Shown: positions 22,501-58,900 of the stretch, one piece after another
Layout: each line of letters opens with the position of its first letter
How positions within the stretch are numbered: the stretch's first letter is position 1
From: a bacterium
GTDB taxonomy: Bacteria; Lindowbacteria; 2-12-FULL-62-27
DNA length: 64,000 nucleotides
Direction of reading: 5' to 3'
NCBI GenBank assembly: GCA_016202645.1
Contig: JACQOF010000127.1
Location: 117,297-181,296, forward strand
Program-made: the position numbers and the translations under genes
The notes under the pieces: model-generated
The model's database searches: none
Seen by the model: only the letters and a program-made list of their open reading frames with translations
Told to the model about the DNA's origin: nothing

Positions 22501-24109
22501 TGAAGAGCCGATCGGCCACGCGCGGGCCCGCCGAGGCCGCCAGGACCTCCCGCAGGCGGTCCGGCCAGGTCTTGCAGATTTCCGCGAGTTCCCGCTCCAG
22601 TTCTGTAAAAGACTTGCCGGCCGGAGTCTTGCGCCCGGTGACGCAGAAAAAATATAACCGCGCGAAATCGCCGCCCTCGGTTCCCATCGACAGCGAATAG
22701 TCGATGGACGCCGCCTCCAGACGCCGCCGCAGGACCGCCTCCATTCTGGCTCGCGCGTCGGTGTTGAACTTCTCCTTCGGCATCACCACCATCACCGATA
22801 TCCCGCGTCCCCGGAGGTCCGGCCGGAAGGTCGCCTTGAAATCCAACTTGCTCTGGGCAACCAGGGCCGTCCGGATTTCCCGGCGAAGATCATCCACGGA
22901 CGCCCCGAAGAGGAGGTCCTTGGGATAGCCCGCGAAAATCCCGTAGATCTCCCGGAAATCATGCGAATGCGCCTGCACCCCCTCCGCCTGGATCACCGCT
23001 TCGAATTTTTTCCGGAGTATCGGAATGTCGGTCGATGGAAGACCCTCGACGCGGTTCGTGAACAACCCCTGGATCCGCCGCTCGCCGGCCAGCCGCCCGG
23101 CGCCGTCAAAAATTTTCTGGCCGATGTAGGCCATCGGCTCCCGGCGGTAGATCGGCGACAGCGCCGATGTCTGCGCGACAACGAGGGAGGCACCCTGAAG
23201 TTTCAGGCCGCGGCGCAGGGACGGGACCACCCGGGTCAGAGGCACCGGCCGGTAAAACCGCGAGATGCGTTCGGCCCGGAGAATGCCAAGCCCGCTGCCG
23301 CGCCGGAGAGAAAAATATTTCCGGCCGCGCTTGTTCGCAAGATTGTATTCCCGATATCCAAGCAGGATGAAATTCCCGTCCAGAAGCCACGTGAGAAACT
23401 CCGCTTCTTCACGCCGGGCGTCAGGGTCTGTATCCGAACGCTTTTCGATATCCGAACGCATCGCCACCGTCGCCGCCCTCATCCGGTCAAAATCCCGAAC
23501 GACGTGGCGGATGTCGGCGTAAATAGACTCCAGCGACGTCTCAATCTGCCGGAGCCGCCTCGCATCCTCCACCCGGTCGACTTCCACATGGATCAGGGAC
23601 TGTCCGGGTTCGCCCGGCCCGATCTGAACCGGCGTTATCCCGCCTCCGCGTTCGACGCGGATCGGAAGAATGGGATGGACAAGATGCACGACGTTGAGTC
23701 CCAGCCCGCGGAGACACTCCCGGACGCTCGCGACATAAAATGGACCGTCCCTGGCCGAAATCTGCAGGACCGTCCGATCCGATGAAAATCCGGCCGGCGT
23801 CAGAGACGCCGGCACTTGGGGCCTCGGAGAGGCTGATCCGTCCTTTTTTTCCTCGGGATTGAATACCGCGACCCCAACACCCGTTCGCAGACTGAGCGCC
23901 ATGACCCGGCGGGCGCTGTGGAGGATGGACGCCAGGTCCCCGGCGCTGTAGCCGAGCACAAAACCATCTGGTGCGTTTTTAAAGAAATGCGGCGCCACCG
24001 TCAACAGTTCACGGCCCGGGCGGCCCCCCCGGCTGAGCAACCGGCGAACCTCCCGCAACCGGCCGGCCACCGGCGGAAAACGAATCGTTACTGCGGTCGG
24101 GACTGACAT
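19532..24109 (-). CDS. gdhB: NAD-dependent glutamate dehydrogenase, large (180-kDa) type
   Basis: A 1525-residue member of the large NAD-glutamate dehydrogenase family, which oxidatively deaminates glutamate to 2-oxoglutarate and ammonia, usually in catabolism. The catalytic core has IRSADIHAMPRPVPLFEIFV, ARGGIRLSDRRDDYRTEVLG and MVKNAVIVPVGAKGGFVIKRG-like sequence with the active-site lysines, and the NAD-binding part FGNGMIWGPETRTLKLLAAF. A long N-terminal regulatory half carries ACT-like segments, and a helical C-terminal region follows. Two foreign-looking insertions are the translations of palindromic elements: SASPRPQVPASLTPAG near residue 95 and the stretch around SSTQGNARDGIS near residue 1425. 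ATG at 24109 is used; a GTG at 24121 adds four residues. Family certain. Confidence 0.95.
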   Translation of the reverse strand: MSVPTAVTIRFPPVAGRLREVRRLLSRGGRPGRELLTVAPHFFKNAPDGFVLGYSAGDLASILHSARRVMALSLRTGVGVAVFNPEEKKDGSASPRPQVPASLTPAGFSSDRTVLQISARDGPFYVASVRECLRGLGLNVVHLVHPILPIRVERGGGITPVQIGPGEPGQSLIHVEVDRVEDARRLRQIETSLESIYADIRHVVRDFDRMRAATVAMRSDIEKRSDTDPDARREEAEFLTWLLDGNFILLGYREYNLANKRGRKYFSLRRGSGLGILRAERISRFYRPVPLTRVVPSLRRGLKLQGASLVVAQTSALSPIYRREPMAYIGQKIFDGAGRLAGERRIQGLFTNRVEGLPSTDIPILRKKFEAVIQAEGVQAHSHDFREIYGIFAGYPKDLLFGASVDDLRREIRTALVAQSKLDFKATFRPDLRGRGISVMVVMPKEKFNTDARARMEAVLRRRLEAASIDYSLSMGTEGGDFARLYFFCVTGRKTPAGKSFTELERELAEICKTWPDRLREVLAASAGPRVADRLFKKYGTAFSVEFHNHTPPQGAQHDILMLEKLKDPGDIHVDIFNSKADPDCSRLKLYHLRTKLVLSDIMPVLTHHGFRVVDEMSNSVRPPASAGDLPMAFIHTFRLQSAAGKIDVERLGAILSESIVESLDGRIECDALSSLTLLAGLQLREVLMLRLYRNYLHQIVPAYTLRSIDAALVENPAVARILTDLFIARFDLAFGPPRSVHREKRESDQVDLLEEALNSVDDLLEDRILRLVADAIRATVRTNYFQTPIRQTLGMKIRSADIHAMPRPVPLFEIFVQDSHVEGIHLRGGLIARGGIRLSDRRDDYRTEVLGLMKTQMVKNAVIVPVGAKGGFVIKRGGTPRDAVEGYRRFIRTLLDLTDNMIGGRVIQPVGCVIHDEPDPYLVVAADKGTAKYSDVANDISLSAGFWLGDAFASGGKDGYDHKKLGITARGVWVCLRHHLNMRAHAGSLTCVAIGDMAGDVFGNGMIWGPETRTLKLLAAFNHKFIFLDPNPNARKAWLERRRLFRMPQSNWNDYDTKAISKGGGVSLRSSKRLNLSPEAARLLGVPVHGVSGEDVIRAILKMDVDLLYNGGIGTYVKATEERHPDVGDPINDRVRVNASEVRAKIIGEGGNLGLTQAARIEYARAGGRINTDAVDNSAGVDLSDHEVNLKILLREMRVPAARGRRMLRGLTGPVTARVLEDNESQSRVLSLEERRSLRQIEVYPKLMDALKDRQGMSREIEGLPSDREISERAKKSQSFWRPELAVLLAYVKLAVNRDLLEDVAPKTSLSADPVLGPFLQAYFPRKIVRSFGRRLTGHPLADQIVAAAAANAFVNRAGLTAAFRLAEDCDVSWSRAVRAYFVAERLTGAESIRSAAARTRMSVPESSTQGNARDGISFTQSRGRIETLDELEENLFEITRWILKEYAQQDVTAALETFGHLTRLLPIAESLLSVAERKIFREYHRRIRNLGVPPTAARRLTEIHTAPHLLDLQVAGRRLRKLR
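19834..19915. repeat. Palindromic repeat element, intragenic copy B (second family)
   Basis: GGAAATGCC-atccct-GGCATTTCC, then ctgagttgaggattc, then GGGGACA-gacatcct-TGTCC. It has the same hairpin order and the shared string TGAG...GGGGAC..GACATCC.TGTCCGC seen at 4200-4297. It is translated in frame in the C-terminal part of glutamate dehydrogenase. Confidence 0.75.
23791..23840. repeat. 54-nt palindromic element inside glutamate dehydrogenase
   Basis: CGGCCGGCGT-CAGAG-ACGCCGGC, then ACTTGGGGCCTCGGAGAGGC and TGATCCG. It differs by only a few bases from the copies at 51079 and 55798. It is read in frame by the minus-strand gene as SASPRPQVPASLTPAG. Confidence 0.85.
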
Positions 24110-24159
24110 CGAAGTTCTCACACGCTAGATCAGGCGCGCGGGTCTGTCAATGTCGGGAT

Positions 24160-24247
24160 GTATCGGGGTATCGGAGTATCGGAGCATTTGGACCAGGGGG
24201 CCGTTGGTGTTTCACCGATACACCGTTACTCCGATACACCGATACTC
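24160..24247. repeat. GTATCGG-unit inverted repeat, copy 1
   Basis: Runs of GTATCGG/GTATCGGAG on the left and their reverse complement CCGATAC on the right are separated by about 35 unrelated bases. It fills most of the gap between divergent glutamate dehydrogenase and glycosyltransferase genes. A second copy follows the RNase P RNA gene (59822-59904). Confidence 0.8.
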
Positions 24248-24281
24248 TCAGACTTGAATTTTAGGGGCGTTGGGACTTACC

Positions 24282-25247
24282 ATGGGCGCCGTGGACCTGT
24301 CGATTGTGATTCCTGTTCTGAACGAGGAGGGGAACCTCGAGCGGCTGCAAAGCGAGATCGCCGCCGCCGTCGCGCCGCTGGGGCGCGCCTACGAAGTCAT
24401 CTACGTGGACGACGGCTCGACCGACCGGAGTTTCGATATCCTGAAGGGGATGGCAGCGCGCGCATCGAATGTTCGGGTGATCCGGTTTCGGAGAAATTTC
24501 GGCCAGACCGCGGCGCTGGCCTGCGGGGCCGAGACAGCAACGGGCGAGACCGTGATTTTTCTCGACGCCGACGGGCAAAACGATCCGGCCGACATTCCGA
24601 AACTCCTCGAGACCCTGGACGATGGATACGACGTCGTTTCCGGCTGGCGGTTTGACCGCAAGGACGACCGGATCACGCGGATTCTGCCCTCGACCATCGC
24701 CAATTGGGTCATCTCCCGGGTCACGGGCGTTCACCTGCACGACTACGGGTGCACCCTGAAAGCCTACCGCCGGGAAATTCTCAAAAATGTCCGGCTCTAC
24801 GGCGAGATGCACCGGTTCATTCCCGTCTACGCGAAGCTGGTCGGCGCGCGCATCACGGAGCTGAAGGTCAATCACCGGCCGCGCACCGCCGGGGTCACGA
24901 AGTACGGCCTGTCGCGGACATTCAAGGTCATCCTGGATCTCTTCACGGCCAAACTCATGACGAGCTACATCACCAAGCCGATCCATTTTTTCGGGGGACT
25001 TGGATTCGGCCTCTGCGGACTCGGGATCCTTTCGGCCGTCGAGACCTTGATCGAAAAACGTCTCATGGGACACTACGTCCACTCCAACCCGTTCATCCTA
25101 CTCGCCATTTTTCTCTTCCAGCTCGGTGTTTTGTTCATCCTCATGGGCCTGATCGCCGAGCTCATCATCCGCACCTACCACGAATCGACCGGCAAGGCGG
25201 TCTATTTCATCTCGGACAGGATCAACATTCAGGGCCATGTCGATTGA
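24282..25247 (+). CDS. Family 2 glycosyltransferase, ArnC/dolichol-phosphate-sugar synthase-like
   Basis: A membrane-anchored enzyme likely to transfer a sugar from a nucleotide donor to a polyprenyl phosphate. The GT-A domain starts LSIVIPVLNEEGNL, has YVDDGSTDRSFD near residue 50 and the metal-binding FLDADGQNDP near residue 96. RPRTAGVTKYGLSR follows, matching the HRPR..G.SK motif of the DPM1/ArnC group. Two C-terminal membrane helices are obvious (IHFFGGLGFGLCGLGIL and FILLAIFLFQLGVLFI). The ATG at 24282 is preferred over a TTG at 24270. Length about 321 residues is typical. It overlaps gatC by 11 bases. The polyprenyl sugar made could feed the GT-C enzymes encoded elsewhere in the window (inference). 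Confidence 0.88.
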   Translation: MGAVDLSIVIPVLNEEGNLERLQSEIAAAVAPLGRAYEVIYVDDGSTDRSFDILKGMAARASNVRVIRFRRNFGQTAALACGAETATGETVIFLDADGQNDPADIPKLLETLDDGYDVVSGWRFDRKDDRITRILPSTIANWVISRVTGVHLHDYGCTLKAYRREILKNVRLYGEMHRFIPVYAKLVGARITELKVNHRPRTAGVTKYGLSRTFKVILDLFTAKLMTSYITKPIHFFGGLGFGLCGLGILSAVETLIEKRLMGHYVHSNPFILLAIFLFQLGVLFILMGLIAELIIRTYHESTGKAVYFISDRINIQGHVD

Positions 25248-25527
25248 CCGCAAGACCGTCGAGCACGTCGCCGCGCTTGCGCGCCTCGGGCTGACCGGGG
25301 AGGAAAAAACAAAACTCGAAGCTGAACTTTCCGGCATTCTCGATCACGTCGCACAGCTTTCGAAACTCGAGACCGGCAAGGTCGAACCGCTTTACCACAT
25401 TCTGCCGATCCAGAACGTCTTCCGGGAGGACGCCGCATCCCCGGCCGGCGTCCGGGACGATGTGCTCAAGCACGCGCCCGGCGCGCGGCCGCCGTTTTTT
25501 GTCGTGCCGAACGTCCTCGATGAGTAA
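25237..25527 (+). CDS. gatC: Asp/Glu-tRNA amidotransferase subunit C
   Basis: The small subunit of the GatCAB complex, which converts Glu-tRNA(Gln) and Asp-tRNA(Asn) to the amide forms. The 96 residues show the family pattern: TVEHVAALARLGLTGEEKTK at the start, LEAELSGILDHVAQLSKLET in the middle, and a C-terminal LREDAASP-like segment (FREDAASPAGVRDDVL) ending in FFVVPNVLDE. GatC stabilises GatA and wraps round GatB. It overlaps the glycosyltransferase by 11 bases and gatA by 8 bases, so it is translationally linked to both. Confidence 0.95.
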   Translation: MSIDRKTVEHVAALARLGLTGEEKTKLEAELSGILDHVAQLSKLETGKVEPLYHILPIQNVFREDAASPAGVRDDVLKHAPGARPPFFVVPNVLDE

Positions 25528-27022
25528 AACCGGCCTGGACCTTTCCGCCTGTCAGCTGGCAGACGCGATCCGCGATGGGGAACTGAGGGCGGCGGACGTC
25601 TGTGGAACGTTTCTCGAACATATCCGGGAACAGGATCCAAAACTTCAGGCTTTCGTCACCGTGCTGGAGGACGACGCGATGCGGCAGGCCGAGTCGGTCG
25701 ACCGGGACCACTCCCACGCGGGCGCGGCGCTGCTTCGCGGCGTGCCGATCGCGCTCAAGGACAACCTCTGCACGCGAGGTGTTCCGACGACCTGCTCCTC
25801 AAAAATTCTGGAGGGGTTCGTGCCGCCCTACGACGCGACGGTGGTGGCGCGCCTTCGGGGCGTGACGCCGTTTCTCGGCAAGACCAACCTCGACGAGTTC
25901 GCGATGGGATCGTCCACCGAAAATTCCGCCCTCTTTGAAACCCGCAACCCGCACGACCCCGGGTGTGTTCCGGGCGGTTCTTCCGGCGGATCCGCCGCCG
26001 CCGTCGCTTCCGGCATGGCGCCCCTCGCGCTCGGGTCCGACACCGGCGGATCGATCCGCCAGCCCGCGGCCTTTTGCGGAGTTGTCGGCCTGAAACCGAC
26101 CTATGGCCGCGTGTCCCGCTACGGCCTCATCGCATTCGCCTCCTCTCTCGACCAGATCGGCCCCTTCGCCCGCACGGCCGAGGACGCGGCGCTTCTCCTC
26201 GACGCCATCGCCGGACCCGACCCGCGCGACGCCACGTGTCTGGCGACAGCCGCGCCGTCTTGCCGCGCAGCGTTATCGAAACCGTTTGAAAAATTGCGAG
26301 TGGGCCTGCCCCGCGAATATTTTCAGGAGGGTCTTTCGGCGCCGGTTGCGCAGGCGCTGGCGGCGACGCGCCAGTCCCTGCAGGACCTCGGATGCTCGAT
26401 GGTGGATGTGTCTCTCCCGCACACCGATTACGCCGTGCCGACCTACTACATCCTCGCGCCCGCCGAAGCCTCCTCGAACCTCGCGCGGTATGATGGCGTG
26501 CAGTACGGACTCCGGGCGCCGGCCGGGAACTTGATCGAACAGTATCTGAACACGAGATCCGCGGGATTCGGCCGCGAGGTCAAACGCCGGATCATGCTTG
26601 GCACCTACGCGCTCTCTTCCGGCTATTATGACGCGTACTATCTCAAGGCCCTGAAAGTCCGCCGGCTGATTCATGACGATTTTTCCAAAGCCTTCGCCCA
26701 GGCCGACGTGCTTCTCACGCCCACCACGCCGACGGCCGCGTTCCGGTTCGGCGAAAAAGTTTCCGACCCTCTGCAGATGTATCTCTCGGACATCTTCACC
26801 ATCTCCGCCAACCTCGCGGGCCTGCCCGCCCTATCCTTCCCCTGCGGAATGGACGGTCATCTCCCCATCGGCGCGCAACTCATCGGTCCCGCGCTTTCCG
26901 AAGCGCGGCTCCTGCGGATCGTCCACGAGTACCAGAAGGACACCAACTGGCACCTTCGGAGACCCCAGTCCATCCTGCGAAGCCCCCAGAAGCGCAAGCG
27001 TACTCCAGGCGAAGCAGGATGA
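25520..27022 (+). CDS. gatA: Glutamyl-tRNA(Gln) amidotransferase subunit A
   Basis: The amidase subunit that releases ammonia from glutamine or asparagine for the tRNA amidation. The amidase-signature Ser-cisSer-Lys triad is visible in LRGVPIALKDNLCTRG (Lys) and in the glycine/serine-rich GGSSGGSAAAVASGMAPLAL and SDTGGSIRQPAAFCG. YGRVSRYGLIAFASSLDQIG and the C-terminal LPALSFPCGMDGHLPIGAQL are also family-typical. At 500 residues it is full length. The start (MSKTGLDL) lies inside the end of gatC, and the stop overlaps the gatB start (ATGA). Confidence 0.97.
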   Translation: MSKTGLDLSACQLADAIRDGELRAADVCGTFLEHIREQDPKLQAFVTVLEDDAMRQAESVDRDHSHAGAALLRGVPIALKDNLCTRGVPTTCSSKILEGFVPPYDATVVARLRGVTPFLGKTNLDEFAMGSSTENSALFETRNPHDPGCVPGGSSGGSAAAVASGMAPLALGSDTGGSIRQPAAFCGVVGLKPTYGRVSRYGLIAFASSLDQIGPFARTAEDAALLLDAIAGPDPRDATCLATAAPSCRAALSKPFEKLRVGLPREYFQEGLSAPVAQALAATRQSLQDLGCSMVDVSLPHTDYAVPTYYILAPAEASSNLARYDGVQYGLRAPAGNLIEQYLNTRSAGFGREVKRRIMLGTYALSSGYYDAYYLKALKVRRLIHDDFSKAFAQADVLLTPTTPTAAFRFGEKVSDPLQMYLSDIFTISANLAGLPALSFPCGMDGHLPIGAQLIGPALSEARLLRIVHEYQKDTNWHLRRPQSILRSPQKRKRTPGEAG

Positions 27023-28464
27023 AGTACGAACCCGTGATCGGCCTGGAGGTCCACGTCCAGCTCAAGACCGCGTCAAAAATTTTCTGCTCCTGCTCCACCG
27101 AATTCGGCCGGGAACCGAACCTCAACACCTGTCCCGTGTGCATGGGGCTTCCCGGGAGCCTCCCCGTGCTGAACCGCCGGGCCGTCGACCTGGCGATATC
27201 GGCCGCTCTGGCCCTGGACTGCCGCATCTCGCCGTTTTTCAAGTTCGACCGGAAGAATTATTTTTATCCCGATCTGCCGAAGGCCTACCAGATATCCCAA
27301 TACGACCTGCCTCTCGCCACCGGCGGGCGGCTCGAAATTTCCGCAAACGGATCGTCCCGAAACATCGACATCGAGCGCATCCACATGGAGGAGGACGCCG
27401 GGAAACTCGTCCACGCCGAGCCCGGGCACGGGGTGCCGAAGGGGACGAGTTTTGTCGACTACAACCGCGCCGGCACTCCCCTCATCGAAATCGTCAGCCG
27501 GCCGGATTTACGAAGTCCCGCCGAGGCCCACGCCTACCTCGACGCCCTGAAGCACATCCTCCGGTATCTCGACGTCTCCGATTGTAATATGGAGGAAGGC
27601 TCCCTCCGCTGTGACGCCAACGTGTCGATCCGTCCGGCGGGCGAGACGGCGCTGGGCACCCGGTCGGAACTCAAGAATTTGAACTCTTTTAAATTCGTCG
27701 AGAAGGCCATCGAGATCGAGATCGAGCGGCAGACTGAGGTTCTCGAATCAGGCGGACGGGTCATCCAGGAAACGCGTGGATACGATTCGGCGAAAAACAC
27801 GACCCATCCCCAGCGCAGTAAAGAGCAGGCGCACGACTACAGGTATTTCCCCGAACCGGACCTTCCGGGATTCACCGTCACGCCGGACCAGATCGAGCGC
27901 TTCCGGAGCGCGTTGCCGGAACTGCCGGCAGCCCGGCGGCGGCGCTTTCAGACAAAGCTAGGTCTTCCGGCCTACGACGCCGAAGTCCTCACGGCCGAAT
28001 CCGACACGGCGGATTATTTCGAGAAGGTCGTCGGGCTTGGCGCCGACCCCAAAAAAACTTCGAACTTCATCATGACCGAACTTCTGTTCAATCTGAAAAC
28101 CGCCGGCCTCCCCGCCGGCCGTTCTCCCGTCACACCGGCGCGGCTTGCGGAACTGCTCAAGCTTCAGGCGGACGGCAAAATCAGCGGCAAGATCGCAAAA
28201 GATATTTTTCCGGCGATGTTCGAGAAGGGCGTATCGGCGCAGGAGGTCCTCAAGGACCAGAAGATCGAACTGATCGCGGACGCTGGGAGCCTGGACGAGC
28301 CGATCCGCCAGGTCATCTCGGAAAATCCAAAGGCGATCGAGGACCTTCGGGCCGGTAAACTCACAGTCCTTGGATTTTTAGTCGGGCAGGTCATGAAGAA
28401 AACGAGGGGCCAGGCAGACCCAAAAATTGTGCCCCAGGAGCTCAAAAAGCGTCTCGGGATTTGA
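27019..28464 (+). CDS. gatB: Asp/Glu-tRNA amidotransferase subunit B
   Basis: The tRNA-binding and kinase subunit of GatCAB. It begins YEPVIGLEVHVQLKT, with the zinc-type cysteines in FCSCSTEFG and NTCPVCMGLPGSLPVLN. Ligand-site segments FYPDLPKAYQISQYD, HMEEDAGKLVH and VDYNRAGTPLIEIVS follow, and then the tail-body YqeY-like domain. Full length at 481 residues. It is the last gene of the glycosyltransferase-gatCAB unit. Its stop is followed by the flgM regulatory region. Presence of gatCAB implies that the organism makes Gln-tRNA or Asn-tRNA indirectly. Confidence 0.97.
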   Translation: MKYEPVIGLEVHVQLKTASKIFCSCSTEFGREPNLNTCPVCMGLPGSLPVLNRRAVDLAISAALALDCRISPFFKFDRKNYFYPDLPKAYQISQYDLPLATGGRLEISANGSSRNIDIERIHMEEDAGKLVHAEPGHGVPKGTSFVDYNRAGTPLIEIVSRPDLRSPAEAHAYLDALKHILRYLDVSDCNMEEGSLRCDANVSIRPAGETALGTRSELKNLNSFKFVEKAIEIEIERQTEVLESGGRVIQETRGYDSAKNTTHPQRSKEQAHDYRYFPEPDLPGFTVTPDQIERFRSALPELPAARRRRFQTKLGLPAYDAEVLTAESDTADYFEKVVGLGADPKKTSNFIMTELLFNLKTAGLPAGRSPVTPARLAELLKLQADGKISGKIAKDIFPAMFEKGVSAQEVLKDQKIELIADAGSLDEPIRQVISENPKAIEDLRAGKLTVLGFLVGQVMKKTRGQADPKIVPQELKKRLGI

Positions 28465-28515
28465 CACGCGCCCGGGACAGTTTGATATCCTATTGATATT
28501 CAGAAGGTTTCCGGC

Positions 28516-28543
28516 TAAAGTTTTGGGTGAGGGTGGCCGATAA
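28516..28543 (+). promoter_or_regulatory. Sigma-28 (FliA) flagellar promoter of flgM
   Basis: TAAAGTTT (28516-28523) and GCCGATAA (28536-28543) are exact matches to the two halves of the sigma-28 consensus. They are separated by 12 bases instead of the usual 11. A Shine-Dalgarno GAGGAGGT (28553-28560) and the flgM ATG (28568) follow immediately. Sigma-28 control of flgM is the classical feedback arrangement. Confidence 0.75.
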
Positions 28544-28567
28544 AGAGGTATAGAGGAGGTAACGCAC

Positions 28568-28873
28568 ATGGTTGTGGAACCCATTCACGGAGGACAGGAA
28601 GTCCAGCGCAGTCAGAACATCAAGAATAAGGACGCTGCGAAGCTTAATGAAGCCTCCAAGTCTGGCAAATCAAGTGATTCGGTCGAAATCAGCGGAGCGG
28701 CCAAGGCGGCAGCCAGCACGAAATCCGCGATTGACGCGGTGCAGGCGGTGCCCGATCTGGTCCGAAGAGACCGAGTGGAGGCAGCGAGAGAGCGAATCCT
28801 TGGCGGCGATTATCTGTCGCCAAAAGTCGTAGACGAAATAGCGGAAAAGATCGCGAATCTACTGATCAAGTAA
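28568..28873 (+). CDS. flgM: Anti-sigma-28 factor FlgM
   Basis: A 101-residue protein of FlgM type, which holds the flagellar sigma factor FliA inactive until the hook is complete and FlgM is exported. The N-terminal half is polar and disordered-looking (KNKDAAKLNEASKSGKSSDS). The C-terminal half has the sigma-binding helices: DSVEISGAAKAA, then DLVRRDRVEAARERILGGDY, then VDEIAEKIANLLIK. This matches FlgM in length and pattern (RV..ar..I..G.Y). The gene has a near-consensus sigma-28 promoter, a strong ribosome site and a terminator downstream (28968-29012). No other flagellar genes are in the window. Confidence 0.85.
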   Translation: MVVEPIHGGQEVQRSQNIKNKDAAKLNEASKSGKSSDSVEISGAAKAAASTKSAIDAVQAVPDLVRRDRVEAARERILGGDYLSPKVVDEIAEKIANLLIK

Positions 28874-28890
28874 ACAATCCGCAGGGCTTT

Positions 28891-28926
28891 CATGAGATCC
28901 GCCAGGGGCGGGCCGCATGAAAGTCC
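28891..28926 (+). other. Hairpin downstream of flgM
   Basis: GGCTTTCATG-agatCCGCC-aggGGCGG-gccgCATGAAAGTCC forms a two-tier stem shortly after the flgM stop. There is no T-run, so it is not an intrinsic terminator. It may protect the mRNA 3' end or be a small RNA domain. Confidence 0.45.
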
Positions 28927-28967
28927 GGCTTAATCCATACCATCATATCCTGTTGTTTGTGTTCCAA

Positions 28968-29012
28968 AGAGAGCTTGGGCCGGCGTTTCAATTCCGAGCT
29001 CTCTCTTTTTTT
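28968..29012 (+). terminator. Intrinsic terminator of flgM
   Basis: AGAGAGCT (28968-28975) pairs with AGCTCTCT (28997-29004), and a run of seven T follows (29006-29012). It is the only terminator-like structure downstream of flgM on the plus strand. Confidence 0.75.
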
Positions 29013-29040
29013 GGGGAGCCCCCTACAACCTTCAGATGTC

Positions 29041-29143
29041 AGGAAAAAAAAAGACCACGGTGGGGCGGTCAAGCGCGGGGGAGAAAAAGTAGAATGATCA
29101 GGTTATCAAATGGCCGCGCTTGCCGTATGCCCCATCGTGGTTC
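29041..29143 (-). terminator. Long intrinsic terminator for the minus-strand small gene
   Basis: On the minus strand a stem is formed by 29114-29143 and 29053-29078 (about 25 pairs with a few mismatches, around CCACGATGGGGC / GCCCCACCGTGG). It is followed by nine T (A-run at 29044-29052). It lies 17 bases after the stop of the 56-codon frame at 29160-29330. Confidence 0.65.
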
Positions 29144-29159
29144 AAATCAGCACTCCAAA

Positions 29160-29330: not shown

Positions 29331-29457
29331 AATCCATCACCATCCTGAAATCTCATCGGGCCCGATCGAAGAGGGGGCCCACACCCTCCCGAAACATCAG
29401 GTCGTATAGGGGTAAGTGTTCAGGTAAAGTTTGAGAAAGTCAAATTCTTTTTTGGAT

Positions 29458-30585: not shown

Positions 30586-30704
30586 GCCTCTCTGCTTCCT
30601 CCTTCCCTCTATATAATATATATATCGTCCGGTTCCCTCCCCGGGATGAGCACAGCGGGGGCAGTCAACTTGACAATATTTGTCTGCTGGGAGACCATCC
30701 GATC

Positions 30705-32408: not shown

Positions 32409-32421
32409 GGTGATATCCTCC

Positions 32422-48684: not shown

Positions 48685-48698
48685 TCGGCGTTGGCGTG

Positions 48699-49706: not shown

Positions 49707-49742
49707 GAAAAAAGTATGTTACAGGCTGGCCCAGATTGTCAA

Positions 49743-51599
49743 TCAACCCTCCGGTCCGGAACGGGACAGCAGCCAGGCGTCGTACCGGGCGCTGTTTTTG
49801 TTAAAAATCGAGTACTCCAGAAATTTTTGCCGGACCTGAGGCCCGTAAAATTCCCGGATCAGGGCGGCCAATTCCGAATATTTCTCCGCGGGGCCGGCCC
49901 TTCCGGCAAGATGCGCGGCATCCGCCATGCGGTCATAGACCCGCGCGGCGCGGGGCTCAAACTGCAGGACCCGGTGAAATCGCCAGTCGCGTTCCCGTTC
50001 CGTGCGCGACCAGTCCGCCGCCTCCATGGCCATGGGCTGGTCACAGGTCTGAAGTTGGCCCAGGGACAGAATGAACTGCCGGCCCTTCTGGTAGAATGGC
50101 CCGCGGGATTCGGCACCGGCCAGTATCCGGTACATCCGGGAGCCGTGGTAGAGAACCGCTGAGGGATTTTCACTCCTTTCCAACGCGGACTCGATCGACC
50201 GGTCGGCCAGATCGGCATGGCCGGCCCGGACCGCCGCCTGGGCGAGGTGGAGGCGCGGCTGTTCGTCCCACGGCCTGAGCCGGGCCGATTCTTCGTAGGA
50301 CGCCATCGCTTCCGGAAGTCTTTCCGCCGATTCCTCATTCATGCCGGCGCGCATCGACTGTCGGGCGAAGAGGTCCTGGATGCCCGTGTAGAGTAGAAAG
50401 GCGCCGACGAGCACCACGGAGAGTCGAAACAGCGCCGTCGACCTGCGCATCATGACCACGGACACATCCGCCGTCAGAGCGACCAGACCGACCAGTCCCA
50501 TCCAGCGGATCGGCGCTAGAGTTTCTGTAATGTTGACCATGAGTTCGAAAATAAACGCGGGCGCCCAGATGAGGCCGGCGCGGCGCGGCCAGTCCGCGCC
50601 CGGCGCGGCGGCGCATCTTTGAACGAGCCGCGCGGCGCAGATTAGAAACGCCAGGCACGTCGCGATGCCCAGGATGCCGCTTTCCGCCGCCCACTGCAGA
50701 AGCACATTGTGCGCGTGGTGGTTGATCCTGGCAAACTGCGCCAGGATCCGCGGATCCGTCACCGGGAACTCTCTGGACATCATTTCCGTGGAAAACATTC
50801 CCAGGCCAGATCCGCCCGGATCATTTGAAAAAATGTTCAGAGCCATAAAAAAAATCCGGGGCCGGAGTTCCGCCAATGGATTCATTTCGACCCGCGCCGC
50901 CGTCAAGGCAAGAACCGCCGCTAGGGCGGCGGCGCCCACCGCCACCGCCATGCGCCGCGCGGACAAGTGGATCCAGAGATACGCGAGGAATACCAGTCCC
51001 AGGCCAAGCAGTCCCGAGCGGCTGCCGTTGAGAAGGATTCCGGCGCACAGGACGGCCGACCACGCCCACCGGGTGACCCGGCCGGCGTCAGAGACGCCGG
51101 CACCTGGGGCCGCGGAGCGGCTGACCCGGCCGAGGCGTGCTGCGAGAAGGCTCCCGGCCAGACCGCCGAGCAGAATCTGCGCCTCGGCGCTTCGCATGAG
51201 CCCAATGCCCCGGCCCTGCGCGTTCATTTGAATCTGGATGGCATAGAGAATCGTCAAGATTGCCCCGCACCAGCGGAGGGCCGTAAAAAGGGCCGCCGGC
51301 AAGTCATGCCGACCCGCGAGAAGGGTGGGCAGGAGGATGAAGAGGGATAAAGCGATCAGCCACCAGCCGCAGGCGTGTACAGCCGTCGCGGCAAAAACAC
51401 GGCCCGTCAGGAGAATCAGGAGGGCCGGGATGAGAAAAAAACTGAGGAAGTGAATCCGGACAGGATGACGGCCAAGAAGAAGGGCGCCGCACATGACGGC
51501 GCCCCCTCCCCACCAGAAATCAAATAGTTTCCAGTTGTCTGTATAACCGCTGAAGATCAGCGCGACTAGAAAATGGGCGATCAGAATGAGCGCAAGCAC
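49743..51599 (-). CDS. O-antigen ligase-like (Wzy/WaaL) membrane protein with C-terminal TPR region
   Basis: A 618-residue protein with about ten to twelve helices. The O-antigen ligase/polymerase signature is in the large periplasmic loop: NDPGGSGLGMFSTEM, INHHAHNVLLQWAAESGILG (the H..N......E.G motif), and NGSRSGLLGLGLVFLAYL earlier. A soluble C-terminal part carries TPR-like repeats (LPEAMASYEESARLRPWDEQ). Near residue 156-173 the sequence GRVSRSAAPGAGVSDAGR is the in-frame translation of a 54-nt palindromic element (51079-51132) between two helices. The start is GTG at 51599 with GGAGGGG just upstream. It probably ligates or polymerises a lipid-linked glycan outside the inner membrane. 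Confidence 0.85.
   Translation of the reverse strand: MLALILIAHFLVALIFSGYTDNWKLFDFWWGGGAVMCGALLLGRHPVRIHFLSFFLIPALLILLTGRVFAATAVHACGWWLIALSLFILLPTLLAGRHDLPAALFTALRWCGAILTILYAIQIQMNAQGRGIGLMRSAEAQILLGGLAGSLLAARLGRVSRSAAPGAGVSDAGRVTRWAWSAVLCAGILLNGSRSGLLGLGLVFLAYLWIHLSARRMAVAVGAAALAAVLALTAARVEMNPLAELRPRIFFMALNIFSNDPGGSGLGMFSTEMMSREFPVTDPRILAQFARINHHAHNVLLQWAAESGILGIATCLAFLICAARLVQRCAAAPGADWPRRAGLIWAPAFIFELMVNITETLAPIRWMGLVGLVALTADVSVVMMRRSTALFRLSVVLVGAFLLYTGIQDLFARQSMRAGMNEESAERLPEAMASYEESARLRPWDEQPRLHLAQAAVRAGHADLADRSIESALERSENPSAVLYHGSRMYRILAGAESRGPFYQKGRQFILSLGQLQTCDQPMAMEAADWSRTERERDWRFHRVLQFEPRAARVYDRMADAAHLAGRAGPAEKYSELAALIREFYGPQVRQKFLEYSIFNKNSARYDAWLLSRSGPEG
51079..51132. repeat. 54-nt palindromic element inside the O-antigen-ligase-like gene
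   Basis: CGGCCGGCGT-CAGAG-ACGCCGGC forms a hairpin, followed by ACCTGGGGCCGCGGAGCGGC and TGACCCGGCCG. It is the best complete copy; others are at 23791, 55798 (inverted) and 57291 (partial). It is translated as GRVSRSAAPGAGVSDAGR. Confidence 0.9.
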
Positions 51600-51669
51600 A
51601 ACCCCTCCCTACAACGGATGCGCCCCTAAGCAGCCTTCCCGCGCGCTTGGAGTAGAACCGGTTAGACCT

Positions 51670-52068: not shown

Positions 52069-52246
52069 CACAATGCCTCCTTTGGCAAATCTCTCTTCAG
52101 CGGTTCGGATAGCTGGAACCCAGCTACTCCGACCTTATGTACTGCAATAACTGTACTATCGGCACAATCTACAGAAAAACATATATAACATACTGTATTG
52201 CAGGAAATAACAACTAATTCAGATACTCTTTAAAAATTCTGGAACG

Positions 52247-53668
52247 TCATTGCTTTGACTTTTTGATAGTGCCTTGACAGACAAAATTGACTAATTTTTC
52301 CAATTTCATTCGCTGGGAAGCCTTAAAGAGAAAGAGCGTTCTTTTTCGAGAATGGATCAATTCGAACAGGTCTTCTTCAATGTCCTTCGACGTATTGGAA
52401 AACCGAACGGACGAACATTTGGCGCCGCTGGACTCGTATCCCCTTTGGAACCATTTGGATTCCGCGCCGATAAAGTACAGACGATCAGGCTGGGCGCCGC
52501 CGGCCACAACACCCAGTTCTCTGTGGTATTTGGCGGTATATCGGCCGAGTTCCAGCATGTCGCCCAAGACCAGGACCAGCCGCATTCCAAACTTCCGGCT
52601 CAGCCGCCGCGCCCTTTCGATGGCAGCTCGCATCGATTCTGGATTGGCGTTGTAACTGTCGTCGACAATGAGATGCGGCCCGGCCCGCAGGACAACGCCG
52701 CGGCCGGCCGGAAGGCGCAGACGGGAGACCGCCGACCTGATTTTTTTTAAAGGCACGGCGAAATGAGAGGCGATGGCGATGGCCAGAAGCACATTCTGGA
52801 TCTGGTGCGCGCCCATGTCCGGGCATCGGAACGACCGGTCCCCCGCATCGAATGCGATCGCGGTCCTGCCCTCGCGGACGTTTCCGATCCGCCAATTTGC
52901 CCCGGGCGCGCGGCCGAAGGAAATGACGGATTGACGTTTCGCGCGCGCCTTCAGAAACGGGAAGAACGGCGAATCGATCGGCAGAAACGCGGGGATGCCG
53001 GCCCGCGCAGCCGTCAGAATTTCCGATTTGGCGCGGGCGATTCCCCGGAGTCCGGAAAAAAATCCGGCATGGGCCGGCGCGACGGAGGTGATCGCGACGA
53101 GATCGGGGTCGGCGATGCGCGTGAGCGCGGCGATCTCGCCGGGATGGTTCATCCCGATTTCCAGGACTCCGGCTTGGGTTTTTTCGGTCATCGACAGCAG
53201 GGTGAGGGGAACGCCGATCGCGTTGTTGAAGCTCCGGGGCGCCGCGACTGTCCGATAGGTTGTCGAGAGCAGCGCCGACACGAATTCCTTGGCGCTGGTC
53301 TTGCCGTTCGATCCGGTGATCGCCACGATTTTTGTTCCGAGTCCGGCGCGATGCCGCCGCGCCAGTTCTCCCAGCGCGGCCGGCGTGTCGGGCGCCGAAA
53401 CCGCGGCGCCCAGCCCGGACTCGCGGAGAGACTTGGCGATTTCAGCCCCCCTCGGCTCGATCAGGACCGCGCCCGCGCCGGCCGCGGCGGCCTGAGCCAG
53501 AAATTCATGCCCGTCGAATCGCTCACCCTTGAGCGCCACAAAAAGTTTCCCCCGGATGTCCGGGTCGCGGCTGTCGATCGTCACGCCGGTCAGCGTCTGC
53601 GAGGGATTCCCGAACAACAGGCGCGCGCCGGGAAGGTCCGCGGCGGCGGAGACGCAGAGGTCAGGCAT
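52247..53668 (-). CDS. murF: UDP-MurNAc-tripeptide D-alanyl-D-alanine ligase
   Basis: Adds D-Ala-D-Ala to the peptidoglycan precursor, the last cytosolic step of the stem peptide. The N-terminal domain has LTGVTIDSRDPDIRGKLFVA and FDGHEFLAQAAAAGA. The ATP-binding loop is VAITGSNGKTSAKEF (near residue 112), followed by SFNNAIGVPLTLL, EIGMNHPGEI, and the C-terminal domain LIVDDSYNANPESMRAAI with VLVLGDMLELG. Length 473 is normal. The start (ATG 53668, or TTG 53671) is within seven bases of the pfk stop. Finding murF apart from the dcw cluster, after dnaE-accA-pfk, is unusual. The last 20 residues are basic (VNFVCQGTIKKSKQ). Confidence 0.95.
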   Translation of the reverse strand: MPDLCVSAAADLPGARLLFGNPSQTLTGVTIDSRDPDIRGKLFVALKGERFDGHEFLAQAAAAGAGAVLIEPRGAEIAKSLRESGLGAAVSAPDTPAALGELARRHRAGLGTKIVAITGSNGKTSAKEFVSALLSTTYRTVAAPRSFNNAIGVPLTLLSMTEKTQAGVLEIGMNHPGEIAALTRIADPDLVAITSVAPAHAGFFSGLRGIARAKSEILTAARAGIPAFLPIDSPFFPFLKARAKRQSVISFGRAPGANWRIGNVREGRTAIAFDAGDRSFRCPDMGAHQIQNVLLAIAIASHFAVPLKKIRSAVSRLRLPAGRGVVLRAGPHLIVDDSYNANPESMRAAIERARRLSRKFGMRLVLVLGDMLELGRYTAKYHRELGVVAGGAQPDRLYFIGAESKWFQRGYESSGAKCSSVRFSNTSKDIEEDLFELIHSRKRTLFLFKASQRMKLEKLVNFVCQGTIKKSKQ

Positions 53669-53674
53669 CAAGCA

Positions 53675-54943
53675 TCAGGATGAGGCAAGGCGCGTGAGGG
53701 GTTCAAAGCGCTGACGGAACGACTCGGGGGTCATCTTGGCCAGGGCCGCCAGCTTTCCGAGCTTTTCGGGATCTTCCAAGTCGGTTCGTTCCAGCCGGAT
53801 CATGTATTTGCGGGCGATGCGGTAATGGATCGAGGATATGTTCACCATCCGGACGCCCATTTTGCCGGTAGCCGGGTCGATGATCTGATCGAAGGCGATG
53901 GGGGTTATGAAGTTTCCCTGGATCGACACGAGCACGTTGCTGCGGCCCTGCTTCAAAAGTTCCACCGCGGCATAGCCGAGGTGCCGGGAGTACTCGATGT
54001 CGAAAGCGACGGGATGCGCGCACCGGACTTCATATCCGACCACGTGGTCGATCATGCGGAGTTTGATCCCCATTTCGGCGAGGCGCTGTTCCACCCGGTG
54101 CTTGACGATCGCGCCGAATTTGACTTCCGACAAGAGCATGTGCCCGAACTCGTCCCGGGGGACTTCGTCCAAGTGCTGAAGGTCCGCCGGGTCCATTTTT
54201 TCGAGAAGGCCCTCGGCCAGGACCGCCACGCCGTAGTTCCGGCCGCCGGCGAGCCGTTTGAGGATGGACGTCACGACCAGGTCGGCGACGGTGTCGAGCC
54301 GGACGGCCGAATCGAATTCCTCCGGGATCAAAATTACCGTCGCCCCGGAGGCCTTGCCGATCCCCAGAGCGAGATGTCCGGCCTTGCGGCCCATCGCCAC
54401 CACGAGAAACCACCGGCCGATACTGCGGGCGTCTTCCGCCAGATTCTGGACGATGACCGACCCGACCTGCCGGGCGGTCTCGTATCCGAAGGTCGGAGTG
54501 CCCTCCGGGAGGGGCAGGTCATTGTCGATGGTCTTGGGCACGTGAACGACCCGGAAATCCGCGCGGCGTTCCTCCCGGGCGACGGCGGAAACCCGGGAGG
54601 CGGTGAAGGCGGTATCATCGCCGCCGATGGAGATGAGGTCGGTGACGCCGATCCGAAGAAGATGGTCGACGACCTGTTTCAATTTTTCGGGATCCTTGCC
54701 GGGGTTGGTGCGGGAAGTCCGCAGGAGGGACCCGCCCCTGTTGTGGATCCGGCTGACGTCGGATATGTCCAGCGGCATCACTTCGGGATTGGGCCCCACG
54801 AGGTGCTTGTATCCGTCCAGAAACCCGATGACCTCCCAGCCGGTGTTGCGCGCCTCGATGGTCGCGGCGCTGATGACGCCGTTGATTCCGGGCGCCGGGC
54901 CTCCGCCTACGATGATGCCGACCAGCCGTTTCGACGCCGCCAT
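53675..54943 (-). CDS. pfp: 6-phosphofructokinase, pyrophosphate-dependent type
   Basis: Phosphorylates fructose 6-phosphate in glycolysis. The donor-site residues indicate pyrophosphate rather than ATP: GGDD at 107-110 (ATP enzymes have GGDG) and PKTIDND at 136-142 (ATP enzymes have PGTIDND). Both substitutions are the recognised marks of PPi-PFK. Other motifs are IIVGGGPAPGINGVISAAT at the start, VAMGRKAGHLALGIGKASGA and LSEVKFGAIVKHRVEQRL. At 422 residues it fits the mid-length PPi-PFK group. The start overlaps the accA stop by one base. The PPi-dependent reaction is reversible and saves ATP. Confidence 0.9.
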   Translation of the reverse strand: MAASKRLVGIIVGGGPAPGINGVISAATIEARNTGWEVIGFLDGYKHLVGPNPEVMPLDISDVSRIHNRGGSLLRTSRTNPGKDPEKLKQVVDHLLRIGVTDLISIGGDDTAFTASRVSAVAREERRADFRVVHVPKTIDNDLPLPEGTPTFGYETARQVGSVIVQNLAEDARSIGRWFLVVAMGRKAGHLALGIGKASGATVILIPEEFDSAVRLDTVADLVVTSILKRLAGGRNYGVAVLAEGLLEKMDPADLQHLDEVPRDEFGHMLLSEVKFGAIVKHRVEQRLAEMGIKLRMIDHVVGYEVRCAHPVAFDIEYSRHLGYAAVELLKQGRSNVLVSIQGNFITPIAFDQIIDPATGKMGVRMVNISSIHYRIARKYMIRLERTDLEDPEKLGKLAALAKMTPESFRQRFEPLTRLASS

Positions 54944-55941
54944 CAGGCCGCTCCGTAACGCCGGAACCGCGCGCGGCGGCTGTCCCGCATCCGGTCAAGC
55001 GGCTCCCGGGAAAGTTCCGTCATGGCCGCCTGCAGGGTCCGGCGGATTTCCGCCGCGGCGGATTCGAGGCCGCGATGGGCGCCGCCGAGAGGTTCGGGAA
55101 TGACGCCGTCGATGATGCCCAGTTTCAATAATTCATCCGCGGTCATCTTCAGCGCCGACGCCGCTTCCTGAGCACGCGCCGCATCCTTCCACAAAATGGC
55201 GGCGCATCCTTCGGGAGATATGACGGAGTAAATGGCGTTCTCCAGCATGTAGATGCGGTCCGCGACGCCCAGGCCCAGCGCGCCGCCGCTGCCGCCTTCC
55301 GACACGATCACCGAGATGACCGGCACGGCCAGGTCCGAGAGCGCCATCAAATTGACGGCAATCGCCTCCGCCTGCCCGCGTTCCTCGGCGGCCAGGCCCG
55401 GGTAGGCGCCGGGGGTGTCGATGAGGGTCACGACGGGACAGCCGAAGCGTTCGGCCATTTCAAACATGCGGCGGGCCTTGCGGTATCCTTCCGGATGCGA
55501 CATGCCGAAATTCCGGCGAAGATTTTCCTGAGTGCCCTTGCCTTTGGCCTGCACCGCCATGACGGCTGTTTTCCCGTCGATGCGCCCGATGCCCGTGATC
55601 ACCGCCTGGTCATCCCCGAAGCATCGGTCCCCATGAAGTTCGACGAAATCGTCCACGATGTGCGTCATCATCTGCTGAACGGTGGGCCGCATGGGGTGCC
55701 GGGCCATCTGGACGCGCTGCCAGGGGGAAAGATTCCCGTAGATTTCCTGCTTCTTTCCGGCCAGTTCCGCGTCCAGTTTCCGAATGCGCTCGTCCACCGG
55801 CCGGATCAGCCGCTCCGCGGCCCCAAGTGCCGGCGTCCCCGACGCCGGCCGGCCGGCGGATTTCTCCTCCTGAAGGGATTCCAGTTCGCGATCGAGGGCT
55901 TCAATGGGCTGTTCAAAGTCGTGGTAGAAGAACATCGTCAT
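54943..55941 (-). CDS. accA: Acetyl-CoA carboxylase carboxyltransferase subunit alpha, with inserted repeat peptide
   Basis: The alpha half of the carboxyltransferase that makes malonyl-CoA, the first step of fatty-acid synthesis. The core is standard: IYGNLSPWQRVQMARHPMRP, FVELHGDRCFGDDQAVITGI, GMSHPEGYRKARRMFEMAER, CPVVTLIDTPGAYPGLAAEE and SEGGSGGALGLGVADRIYML with PEGCAAILWKDA. Near residue 30, in the linker before the conserved helix (VDERIRKLDAEL), sits AGRPASGTPALGAAERLIRP, which is the translation of the 54-nt palindromic element in inverted orientation (55798-55851). The start ATG (55941) overlaps the dnaE stop, and the end overlaps pfk by one base. accD is not in the window. Confidence 0.96.
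   Translation of the reverse strand: MTMFFYHDFEQPIEALDRELESLQEEKSAGRPASGTPALGAAERLIRPVDERIRKLDAELAGKKQEIYGNLSPWQRVQMARHPMRPTVQQMMTHIVDDFVELHGDRCFGDDQAVITGIGRIDGKTAVMAVQAKGKGTQENLRRNFGMSHPEGYRKARRMFEMAERFGCPVVTLIDTPGAYPGLAAEERGQAEAIAVNLMALSDLAVPVISVIVSEGGSGGALGLGVADRIYMLENAIYSVISPEGCAAILWKDAARAQEAASALKMTADELLKLGIIDGVIPEPLGGAHRGLESAAAEIRRTLQAAMTELSREPLDRMRDSRRARFRRYGAA
55798..55851. repeat. 54-nt palindromic element inside accA, inverted orientation
   Basis: The reverse complement reads CGGCCGGCGT-CGGGG-ACGCCGGC, then ACTTGGGGCCGCGGAGCGGC and TGATCCGGCCG. It aligns over all 54 bases with 51079-51132 at a few mismatches but lies in the opposite direction relative to its host gene. It is translated in a different frame. 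Confidence 0.9.
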
Positions 55942-58900
55942 CAGACGGATTCCGCCGGGGGTTTGGATTTGAGAAAAAAAACGGAATGAGGGCCCAGAAC
56001 CGTTTCGAGCCTGCGGCGAAGATCCGCTGACGGACGGCAACTCCAGCCGAGCCGGAACTCGAATATCCCGCCGCTTTCCGGCATCTCGACGTGGACCGGC
56101 CGGTCGCCCGGATGGTCTTTCAAGATCTGCTTCACTTTCTTCATGGTATCCATTCCCGTTTCCTGATCTAACTTGAGAAAGATGGATTCATAGAGTTTGT
56201 CCGGCTGATCCACTCCCACAGCCTGATCGGCGAGGAGTGTAACAGACGCGCCTTTTTTTTCAAGACGGCCCCGGAGGAGCAGCGGCATGCCGGGCGTCAG
56301 GATGGCCTTGTAACGCTGGTACGCGTCGGCAAAAAAAATGACGTCGATTTCGGCGTCGCCATCCTCCGCTTTGACAAACGCCATCTCCCGGCCCGCCTTG
56401 TCCGTGTGGAGACGGATGCCGGTCACAAGCCCGGCCACTGTCACCGGCGCGGACGCGCCGGGGGCCGCGCCCGGAGCATGGGAAGGATCGGATTCCCGGC
56501 GGCGGACGCTCGCCGCGGCGACCAACTCGCCGAGGGGTCCGGAACAAAACTCGGCGATGATGTCCCGCAGGTCATCGAGGGGAGAGCCTGTCGCGAAACA
56601 GCCAAGCGCCTCGTGCTCGAAGAACAGACTCTCCTGCGCGGGGGCAACCCGGGGCCGGTCCGCGGGACTGGATTCAGGCGGCGGCGATGGTTCGTCGAAG
56701 AGATCCGTCTGATACGCTCCGTCGGCGCCCGACCGGCGGATTTTGTCGGACCACATCGGCAGAGACTCGAGAATGGCGCCGCGGGCCGGCCCGAATTCGT
56801 CCAGCGCGCCGGACTTGCAGAGCGCCTCCAGGGATTTGCCCTTGAGCAGTTCCGGGACCTTGATGAGCAGATCCGTGAGATCGTCGAAGGGCCGCGTCCG
56901 GAGAATTTCCGAAAGAGCGGCGTCCGAAAGATGCCGGACGAGGCGCAGTCCCAGCCGGATCACGCCGTTTTCCGGCTGAGGCACGCACTCGAGGCTGGAC
57001 CGGTTGATGTCCGGAGCGGCCACCCGCAGGCCGCGCCGCCGGGCTTCCGAAAAAATTTCTCCCAGACGGCGCCGGTCGTCCGTGGATTCGTTGGCGAGAG
57101 CGGCCAGAAACGCGGCCGGGAAATGACATTTGAGATACGCGGCCCGGTAGACCAGCATCGCGTAGGCGACGGCATGCGCCTTGTTGAAGGCGAACGCCCC
57201 ATGCACGGAAATCTGCGAGAGTACGGCGGCGGCGGCCGTTTCGGATAGGCCGGTCGCGCGGAGACCGTCGACGAAACGATCGACGGCGGGGGCCCTTGGG
57301 GCCGCGGAGCGGCTGACCCGGCCGACCGCCAGCCGAAATTCGTCCGCCTCGGCGGCGCTTAAGCCGGACCGGACGGCGCAGTCCATGAGCTGTTCCTGAT
57401 AGAGAATCAGGCCGAAGGTTTCCTTCAATCCTGATTCGAACACCGGATGAGGAGGGGTCGGCGCCGAGCGGCCATGCCGGCGCTCGATGTAGGCGGCCGG
57501 CACGCCCGCCTCGAGCGGGCCGGGCCGGTAGAGGGCCAGGGCGGCCGCGAGGGATTCGATGGAGCCCGGCGCCAGGTCCTTGAGGAGGCGCCGCATGCCG
57601 GCGCTTTCAAGCTGAAAAATGCCAAGCGTGCGGCCGGATGCGAGCATCGAAAATGTTGCGGCGTCATTTTGGGGCAGATCGGACAGATCAAGGTCGGCGG
57701 CGCCGGCGCGTTTCAGCCACCGCACAGTCTCGTCCATGACCGCGAGGATCTTCAAGGGCAGGATGTCGAGTTTCTGAAGCCCCAAAGTTTCCAAATCGTC
57801 GCCATCGAACTGCAGCCACGCCGCGCCGTCGGCGGAGGCGTAGAGTGGGAGCAGGGATTCGCGGCCGGCCGGCACCGCCACCACGCCCGCGGGATGGCCG
57901 AGCGATCCGCGAGGAAGACCAGCGAGGGTATGGATGGCCGGCGCCCAGTCCGACCAGGGCGGGCGCTCATCCCGGCCAAGCCTGATGGCGCCGTCGGGAA
58001 GACTTCGGACTTTGTCGTCCACTTCCCGGTACGACATCCCGCGGCTCCGCGCGACTTCGCGGAGAGCGGCCTTCAAACCAACCGAGGAACTGCCGCCGGC
58101 CCGGAAAGTCCGGATCGAATCATCGAGCCCGCTCAATATCGCCACCATCCGGTCGCGGCGGCGCTGGTCTACGTCCAAATCGATGTCCGGCATCGTGCGG
58201 CGGGCGGGGGAGACGAAGCGTTCGAACGAAAGACCGTACGCGAGCGGATCGACTTCCGTGATGCCGAGCAGAAACGCCGCGTAAGACCCCGCGGCCGATC
58301 CGCGGCCGGGACCGATGAGAATTCCCTCCCGGCGGGCCTCCGACACCAGCTCGTGGACCCGGAGCATGTAGCCGGAAAGTCCGGCCGCGGCCAGGGCCTT
58401 CAGTTCCCGCTCGATGCGCTCTGTCTGCTCTTCCGTGAGGCGGGACGCGCGGCGCGAGATGATCTCAAGGACAACCGACCGGAGACGCTCTGCCGACTGC
58501 GCTTCTGTTTCAGGCGCCAGACCGGATTGCAGATCGGACAGGCGGACTTTGCAGCGGCCGGCGATTTCGGCGGAAGTTTCGAGGGACTCCGGTACGTCCG
58601 CGAAGGCCTCTTTCCACTCCGACGCCGTCAGAAGGCCATACGCAGGCTTGAGAAACCGGGACCGGCGCGGGTCAGTCGGAAGTTTTCGCGAGCGCATGTC
58701 CATCGCCAGCTGGTGGGCCTCGGCATCCGCGGAGGAAAGATAATGAACGTCGTTCGTGGCGGCGATCCGGAAGCGGCGGGCCCGGGAAATGCCGCGAATG
58801 GCCTCTCGAAGTTCGGCCTCCTGATCCAGGCCGTGACCCTGCAGTTCCAGAAACACGCGGTCGCGGCCGAATGATTCCAGATAAAATCCCAGAAGTTTTT

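What the first reader, a model, noticed from the sequence alone, without database searches (positions are those of the whole stretch)
23791..57324. A 54-nt palindromic element translated in frame within four unrelated proteins
Near-identical 54-nt sequences (CGGCCGGCGT-nnnnn-ACGCCGGC, then a GGGGCCGCGGAGCGGC arm) occur inside the glutamate dehydrogenase (23791), O-antigen-ligase-like (51079) and accA (55798) genes, and as a right half in dnaE (57291). Every host frame stays open. All four sit where an extra peptide should be tolerated: a linker of GDH, a loop between membrane helices, the AccA linker before its conserved fold, and the DnaE 'RRAMGKK' loop. 54 is a multiple of three. Four copies in genes and none between genes in 64 kb suggest either coding-region targeting or selection for in-frame insertion. 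It parallels the Rickettsia palindromic elements in behaviour, not in sequence.
Basis: partly seen in the sequence, partly recalled or inferred. Interest (0 to 1): 0.9.

Follow-up and report, generated by a model that had tools for sequence, protein, structure and literature searches.

The report
Mobile hairpin DNA translated inside genes
A 48-letter piece of DNA that folds into two hairpins has copied itself about 40 and 70 times into two uncultured Lindowbacteria-family genomes, often into working genes, where it adds exactly 16 amino acids without breaking the protein, much as was described for parasites of the genus Rickettsia.

Summary
The repeat is real and not a G+C artefact. It is a two-hairpin element present 42 times in the window's own genome (2.9 Mb draft), 70 times in a family relative (Ca. 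Lindowbacteria RIFCSPLOWO2_12_FULL_62_27), once in a third family member, and not found elsewhere. Fourteen base pairs are 98.8% maintained, eight with compensatory changes, so the nucleic-acid hairpins, not a peptide, are conserved. Orthologues give clean empty sites: the gain is exactly 48 nt (16 aa), not 54. GDH and AccA are clean insertions, the O-antigen-ligase-like copy less cleanly so, and the DnaE copy is a right-half remnant that replaced a loop. Units nested inside other units confirm a discrete 48-nt mobile unit. Coding-region targeting is not supported: copies lie in genes at the chance rate in the own genome (64% against 62%) and below it in the relative (42% against 63%). Copies in genes never use the frame with a TGA stop (0 of 53, 8 to 11 expected) and favour a Gly/Ser/Ala-rich frame, so they are translated and filtered by selection. 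It works like Rickettsia palindromic elements but is unrelated in sequence. A single-stranded-DNA mobilisation route is my inference; no transposase partner was found.

The parts
23793..23840 (+). 48-nt element core in the large NAD-glutamate dehydrogenase gene (host on - strand, ORF 19532-24121); encodes residues about 94-110
   Evidence: orthologue L192 lacks exactly 16 aa here; Pfam GDH
51081..51128 (+). 48-nt element core in the O-antigen-ligase-like gene (host on - strand, ORF 49743-51599); residues about 158-173
   Evidence: Wzy_C. Empty site less clean because the orthologue L197 is only 40% identical
55802..55849 (-). 48-nt element core in accA (host ORF 54943-55941, - strand, same sense); residues 31-47, peptide GRPASGTPALGAAERLIRP
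   Evidence: 16 relatives lack it; AlphaFold model places it in a low-confidence turn between two helices
57295..57320 (+). right-half remnant (linker plus hairpin 2) in dnaE (host ORF 55941-59363, - strand); replaces a native loop
23790..23792 (+). target-side CCG left of the GDH copy; the element's own 3' end also reads CCG
55850..55852 (-). target-side CCG left of the accA copy (element orientation)

Best explanation
The feature is a small non-autonomous mobile element of 48 nt: hairpin 1 (9-bp stem, GGA or AGA loop), linker ACTTGGG, hairpin 2 (5-bp stem, GGA loop), and tail TGAYCCG. It inserts at CCG^(GCCGG)-like sites and sometimes after the GG of the GGA loop of another copy. Because the unit is 16 codons long and five of its six frames lack a stop (four if the loop is AGA), insertions into genes add a short peptide instead of destroying the gene; selection removes the frame with a stop and favours the Gly/Ser/Ala-rich frame. 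Shown: mobility, exact 48-nt gain, conserved hairpins, chance-level placement in one genome, frame filtering. Inferred: it moves as a single-stranded hairpin DNA (HUH/Y1-like, joined ends resembling the CCG|GCCGG target), supplied in trans by an unidentified enzyme. I give the mobile, RPE-like reading about 0.85 and the single-strand mechanism about 0.35.
For: Copy numbers 42/70/1 in three family genomes, 0 in 57 others; genome collection scan hits one Lindowbacteria genome plus one spurious site. Compensatory pairs: 8 of 14, slid controls collapse. Exact 16-aa gaps at about 20 sites, among them GDH, AccA, RND pump, response regulator, redoxin, Crp/Fnr, GltX, TrmD. No insertion shared between the two genomes at compared sites. 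Target CCGGCC present empty in an orthologue (C23/L174). Four nested insertions, each exactly 48 nt, all after the GG of a GGA loop. Frame use p = 4e-10 against target phase; stop frame 0 of 53. Genic share against random. Different master stems in each genome (CCGC/GCGG against CGCC/GGCG).
Against: No gene was found flanked by the element. The ten Y1 genes of the own genome carry their own inverted repeats and no element within the fetched flanks of up to 1.5 kb, and the genome with one copy still has six Y1 genes. No hairpin-1-only and hairpin-2-only pair was seen to bound a gene. No target duplication marks the insertion step, because the CCG overlap leaves the junction ambiguous by up to three bases. 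Translation is inferred from sequence only.
Confidence: 0.78

Rival explanations
1. It is a REP element mobilised by a RAYT tyrosine transposase present in the genome.
For: Hairpin element next to a short conserved terminal sequence; 10, 8 and 6 Y1_Tnp genes in the three genomes; two Y1 groups occur in the two element-rich genomes and not in the third.
Against: No GTAG or CGTC unpaired tag; none of the own genome's Y1 genes is flanked by the element; they carry gene-specific terminal inverted repeats as in the TIRYT genes of PMC3733652.
Confidence: 0.15
2. The element targets coding regions or is selected for a useful inserted peptide.
For: Most copies in the own genome are in genes (25 of 39); one frame is strongly favoured.
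Against: Random positions give the same share (62%), and the relative has fewer genic copies than chance (27 of 65 against 63%, p = 0.0004). Peptides differ in at least four frames while the hairpins are conserved.
Confidence: 0.05
3. Copies spread through recombination or template switching between GGCCGG-rich palindromes during replication, without any enzyme dedicated to them.
For: Element ends and target share CCG|GCCGG; tandem copies exist.
Against: Exact 48-nt units at scattered sites, constant order of the two hairpins, nested insertions in loops without long flanking homology.
Confidence: 0.2
4. RNA-level copying by a reverse transcriptase, for example the group II intron type enzyme present in both element-rich genomes.
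For: Strong RVT_1 genes in G000 and G001, only a weak one in G002; stable RNA fold.
Against: No element at the G000 RT locus and only a lone hairpin 1 about 2 kb from the G001 one; group II introns recognise their own RNA (general knowledge).
Confidence: 0.1
5. Compositional coincidence of a high-G+C genome.
For: The element is very rich in G+C.
Against: 0.05 expected against 4 found; 30 against 0 for the reversed pattern; empty sites.
Confidence: 0.01

Closest known systems
Rickettsia palindromic elements (RPE; Ogata 2000, 2002 as cited in PMC10969869)
   Same: Short palindromic repeats inserted in frame in unrelated protein genes, tolerated as extra peptide.
   Different: RPEs of about 150 bp in Rickettsia; here 48 nt, two hairpins with GGA loops, unrelated sequence, an uncultured candidate phylum.
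GTAG and CGTC REPs, including intragenic REPs of Opitutus terrae and R. conorii (PMC3733652)
   Same: Hairpin repeats, partly inside genes; CGTC REPs likewise lack a flanking transposase.
   Different: REPs are 20-40 bp palindromes with an unpaired GTAG or CGTC tag and mostly intergenic; here two hairpins in fixed order, no such tag, genic share at chance in the own genome.
PATE / IS200-IS605 non-autonomous elements (general knowledge)
   Same: Two sub-terminal hairpins on one strand, target sequence abutting the left end, no obvious target duplication.
   Different: No IS200/IS605 element with matching ends was found; 48 nt is far shorter than the elements of this kind known to me.
MITEs with terminal inverted repeats (PMC10969869)
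   Same: Non-autonomous, multicopy, sometimes forming in-frame fusions.
   Different: No clear terminal inverted repeats with target duplication; two same-strand hairpins instead.

Membership tests
Rickettsia palindromic element (as a behaviour class: protein-coding palindromic element) | In-frame insertion in unrelated protein genes with orthologues lacking it | tested here: met
   16-aa gaps in about 20 hosts
Rickettsia palindromic element (as a sequence family) | About 150 bp and homologous to a described RPE family in Rickettsia | tested here: not met
   48 nt; element found only in one Lindowbacteria family. Direct alignment to RPE sequences was not made
REP (GTAG or CGTC) | Unpaired GTAG or CGTC tag at one end of a 20-40 bp palindrome | tested here: not met
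   Consensus GCCGGCGTC-NGA-GACGCCGGC-ACTTGGG-GCNNC-GGA-GNNGC-TGAYCCG; CGTC occurs only inside the paired stem
REP / REPtron | RAYT gene flanked by the repeat | tested here: not met
   Ten Y1 loci of the own genome scanned with flanks of up to 1.5 kb, none with the element
REP | Predominantly intergenic | tested here: not met
   64% genic in G000 (chance 62%), 42% in G001
IS200/IS605 derivative | Transposase gene bounded by the same left and right ends | tested here: not met
   No isolated hairpin-1 plus hairpin-2 pair around a gene
IS200/IS605 derivative | Insertion into single-stranded DNA by an HUH enzyme | not testable with these tools
   Needs biochemistry; loop-targeted nested insertions are suggestive only
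TIR-type MITE | Terminal inverted repeats and target duplication | tested here: not met
   Left-flank deviations are not mirrored on the right, where CCG is invariant

The most novel reading that the evidence does not exclude
A dedicated, still unknown single-strand mobilisation system moves 48-nt double-hairpin DNA and prefers single-stranded GGA loops and CCG sites as targets; a unit length of 16 codons with open frames has been kept by selection because most landing sites are genes. Length variants (57-nt three-hairpin form, 21-nt lone hairpin 1, 24-nt hairpin-2 form) are all multiples of three.
Probability: 0.25. Interest if true: 0.8.

Novelty: new variant of a known kind. Interest (0 to 1): 0.62.

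Why it matters
Translated palindromic elements are best known from Rickettsia and, as intragenic REPs, a few other bacteria. Here is an unrelated one in a candidate-phylum lineage, with exact empty sites, nested insertions and two genomes with independent bursts, so questions about how such elements move, whether unit length is tuned to the codon, and how proteins such as AccA, GltX and TrmD tolerate sudden 16-residue insertions become directly testable.

Tried and rejected
RAYT partner: Y1 loci scanned for the element and for hairpins; they have their own inverted repeats. Reverse transcriptase partner: RT loci examined, nothing convincing. Phage carriage: viral contigs 0 hits. Known RNA family: Rfam finds only RNase P in the window and nothing in five element-rich loci. 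Methanocella hit: only a half match with a broken stem and no hairpin 1, judged chance. A 4645-aa chimeric query was too long and was shortened. Autonomous element bounded by the two hairpins: none seen.

Full report
Observation. The four sequences are present as described and are far beyond chance. The window lies in an 82%-complete draft genome, G000, 2.9 Mb in 146 contigs. Its family relative G001 is the Candidatus Lindowbacteria genome RIFCSPLOWO2_12_FULL_62_27: contig numbers, lengths and element positions agree with MFPR01 records. The name of G000 itself is not known to me.

Extent. A covariance model built from 68 copies finds 42 copies in G000, 70 in G001, one in G002 and none in 57 more distant genomes. 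The pattern scan of the 84,980-species collection hit only G001 and one half match in a Methanocella bin that has no hairpin 1 and a broken stem. No viral contig carries it and Rfam does not know it.

Anatomy. The consensus core is GCCGGCGTC-NGA-GACGCCGGC-ACTTGGG-GCNNC-GGA-GNNGC-TGAYCCG. The two hairpins hold 98.8% of base pairs across 68 distinct copies; eight of fourteen pairs show changes on both sides, against a shuffle mean of 3.0, and every slid control collapses. RNA folding gives -28 to -31 kcal/mol with z about -2.4 to -3.6. G000 and G001 have different commonest hairpin-2 stems (CCGC/GCGG and CGCC/GGCG), so each lineage amplified its own version.

Exact size. Chimeric queries made of host flanks located orthologues in the other two genomes. 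Pairwise alignment gives a gap of exactly 16 residues at GDH, AccA, an RND pump, a response regulator, an AhpC/TSA-type redoxin, a Crp/Fnr regulator and a PP2C phosphatase in G000, and at GltX, TrmD, a CHASE-domain kinase, a LolA-like protein, a branching enzyme and others in G001 (Pfam names). Nucleotide comparison puts the 48-nt gain between CCG and GCCGG-like target bases, with a CCG overlap that leaves the cut ambiguous; one orthologue keeps the empty CCGGCC target. Sixteen AccA relatives, most from other families, lack the peptide. The same redoxin gene was hit at different places in the two genomes. The DnaE copy is a remnant that replaces a loop.

Nested units. In four G001 loci an element sits inside another. 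Removing 48 nt restores a complete outer unit each time, and the point of entry is after the GG of a GGA-type apical loop: hairpin 1 at C33:71420, C4:404322 and C4:478003, hairpin 2 at C26:135186. The case at C4:478003 was read by eye from the printed sequence, because the script handled only full-length alignments. CGG occurs at about four positions in the unit, so loop preference is suggestive, not proven.

Genes or not. A codon-usage classifier trained on the window of 39 G000 copies inside an open coding frame, against 62% for random positions and 71% for CCGGCC sites; in G001 it is 27 of 65 against 63%. This gives no support to targeting of coding regions. Among the 53 copies with coding flanks in one common frame, counted without requiring that the frame be open, none uses the sense frame that contains TGA (expected 8 to 11, P = 3e-6 with the degenerate target set), and 23 use the antisense frame that reads GR(I/V)SASGAPSAGVSDAGR (expected 7 to 11); chi-square against target phase p = 4e-10. 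The single case with a stop (G000 C126:20668) lies between two genes that happen to share a frame. So copies in genes are most likely translated and screened, while the hairpin, not any one peptide, is what is kept.

Tolerance. The AlphaFold model of AccA (mean pLDDT 86.6) puts residues 30-41 in a low-confidence turn between two long N-terminal helices. Insertions also occur in tRNA synthetase (GltX) and TrmD proteins, and at the very start of LepA, so proteins normally regarded as essential or central accept them.

Mechanism. What is shown is movement of a fixed unit. How it moves is inferred. Two same-strand hairpins, a target trinucleotide equal to the element's own 3' end, and entry into hairpin loops resemble single-strand transposition by HUH/Y1 enzymes (general knowledge). 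Against this, the Y1 genes here are of the TIR-flanked kind described in PMC3733652 and none of those scanned bears the element; nor does any gene lie between separate copies of the two hairpins. I therefore hold the single-strand route at about one in three.

Comparison. It works like Rickettsia palindromic elements and like intragenic REPs, but fails the REP tag, RAYT-flank and intergenic tests, and has no known sequence relative. I file it as a new variant of a known kind.

Limits. Coding calls rest on a simple codon model; the G001 baseline comes from loci chosen because they hold copies; four G001 copies lacked fetched flanks; both genomes are drafts; copy counts include partial and nested units; RPE sequences were not aligned directly.

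Noticed in passing
L080:7410-7510, L088:4310-4415, L160 (G001 C4:478003), L158 (G001 C26:135186): Elements nested inside elements, always after GG of a GGA-type loop; three of the four inner units start GTCGG instead of GCCGG, unexplained.
   Followed up: partly
L025, L028, L148, L151, L152, L153 (G000): A 57-nt three-hairpin subfamily in which TCCGCCTGAGGCGGA replaces the linker; also a multiple of three.
   Followed up: partly
L280, L281, L282, L283, L278 (G001): Lone hairpin-1 copies of 21 nt after CCG or similar, again a multiple of three.
   Followed up: no
L167:3329-4303: The only copy in genome G002 sits in frame in a Fic/HTH gene and carries a G001-like stem, which suggests transfer from a relative.
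   Followed up: partly
window 12312-13366: A Y1 tyrosine transposase (ORF 12366-13346) bounded by 24-nt inverted repeats GGGGTCATTCCCTTAGTTTGTTAG, a TIRYT-type element; about ten divergent Y1 genes in the genome.
   Followed up: partly
window 26037-26129: A selenocysteine tRNA gene.
   Followed up: no
in-gene copies of G000 and G001: Elements are antisense to their host gene in 37 of 53 cases (p = 0.005).
   Followed up: partly
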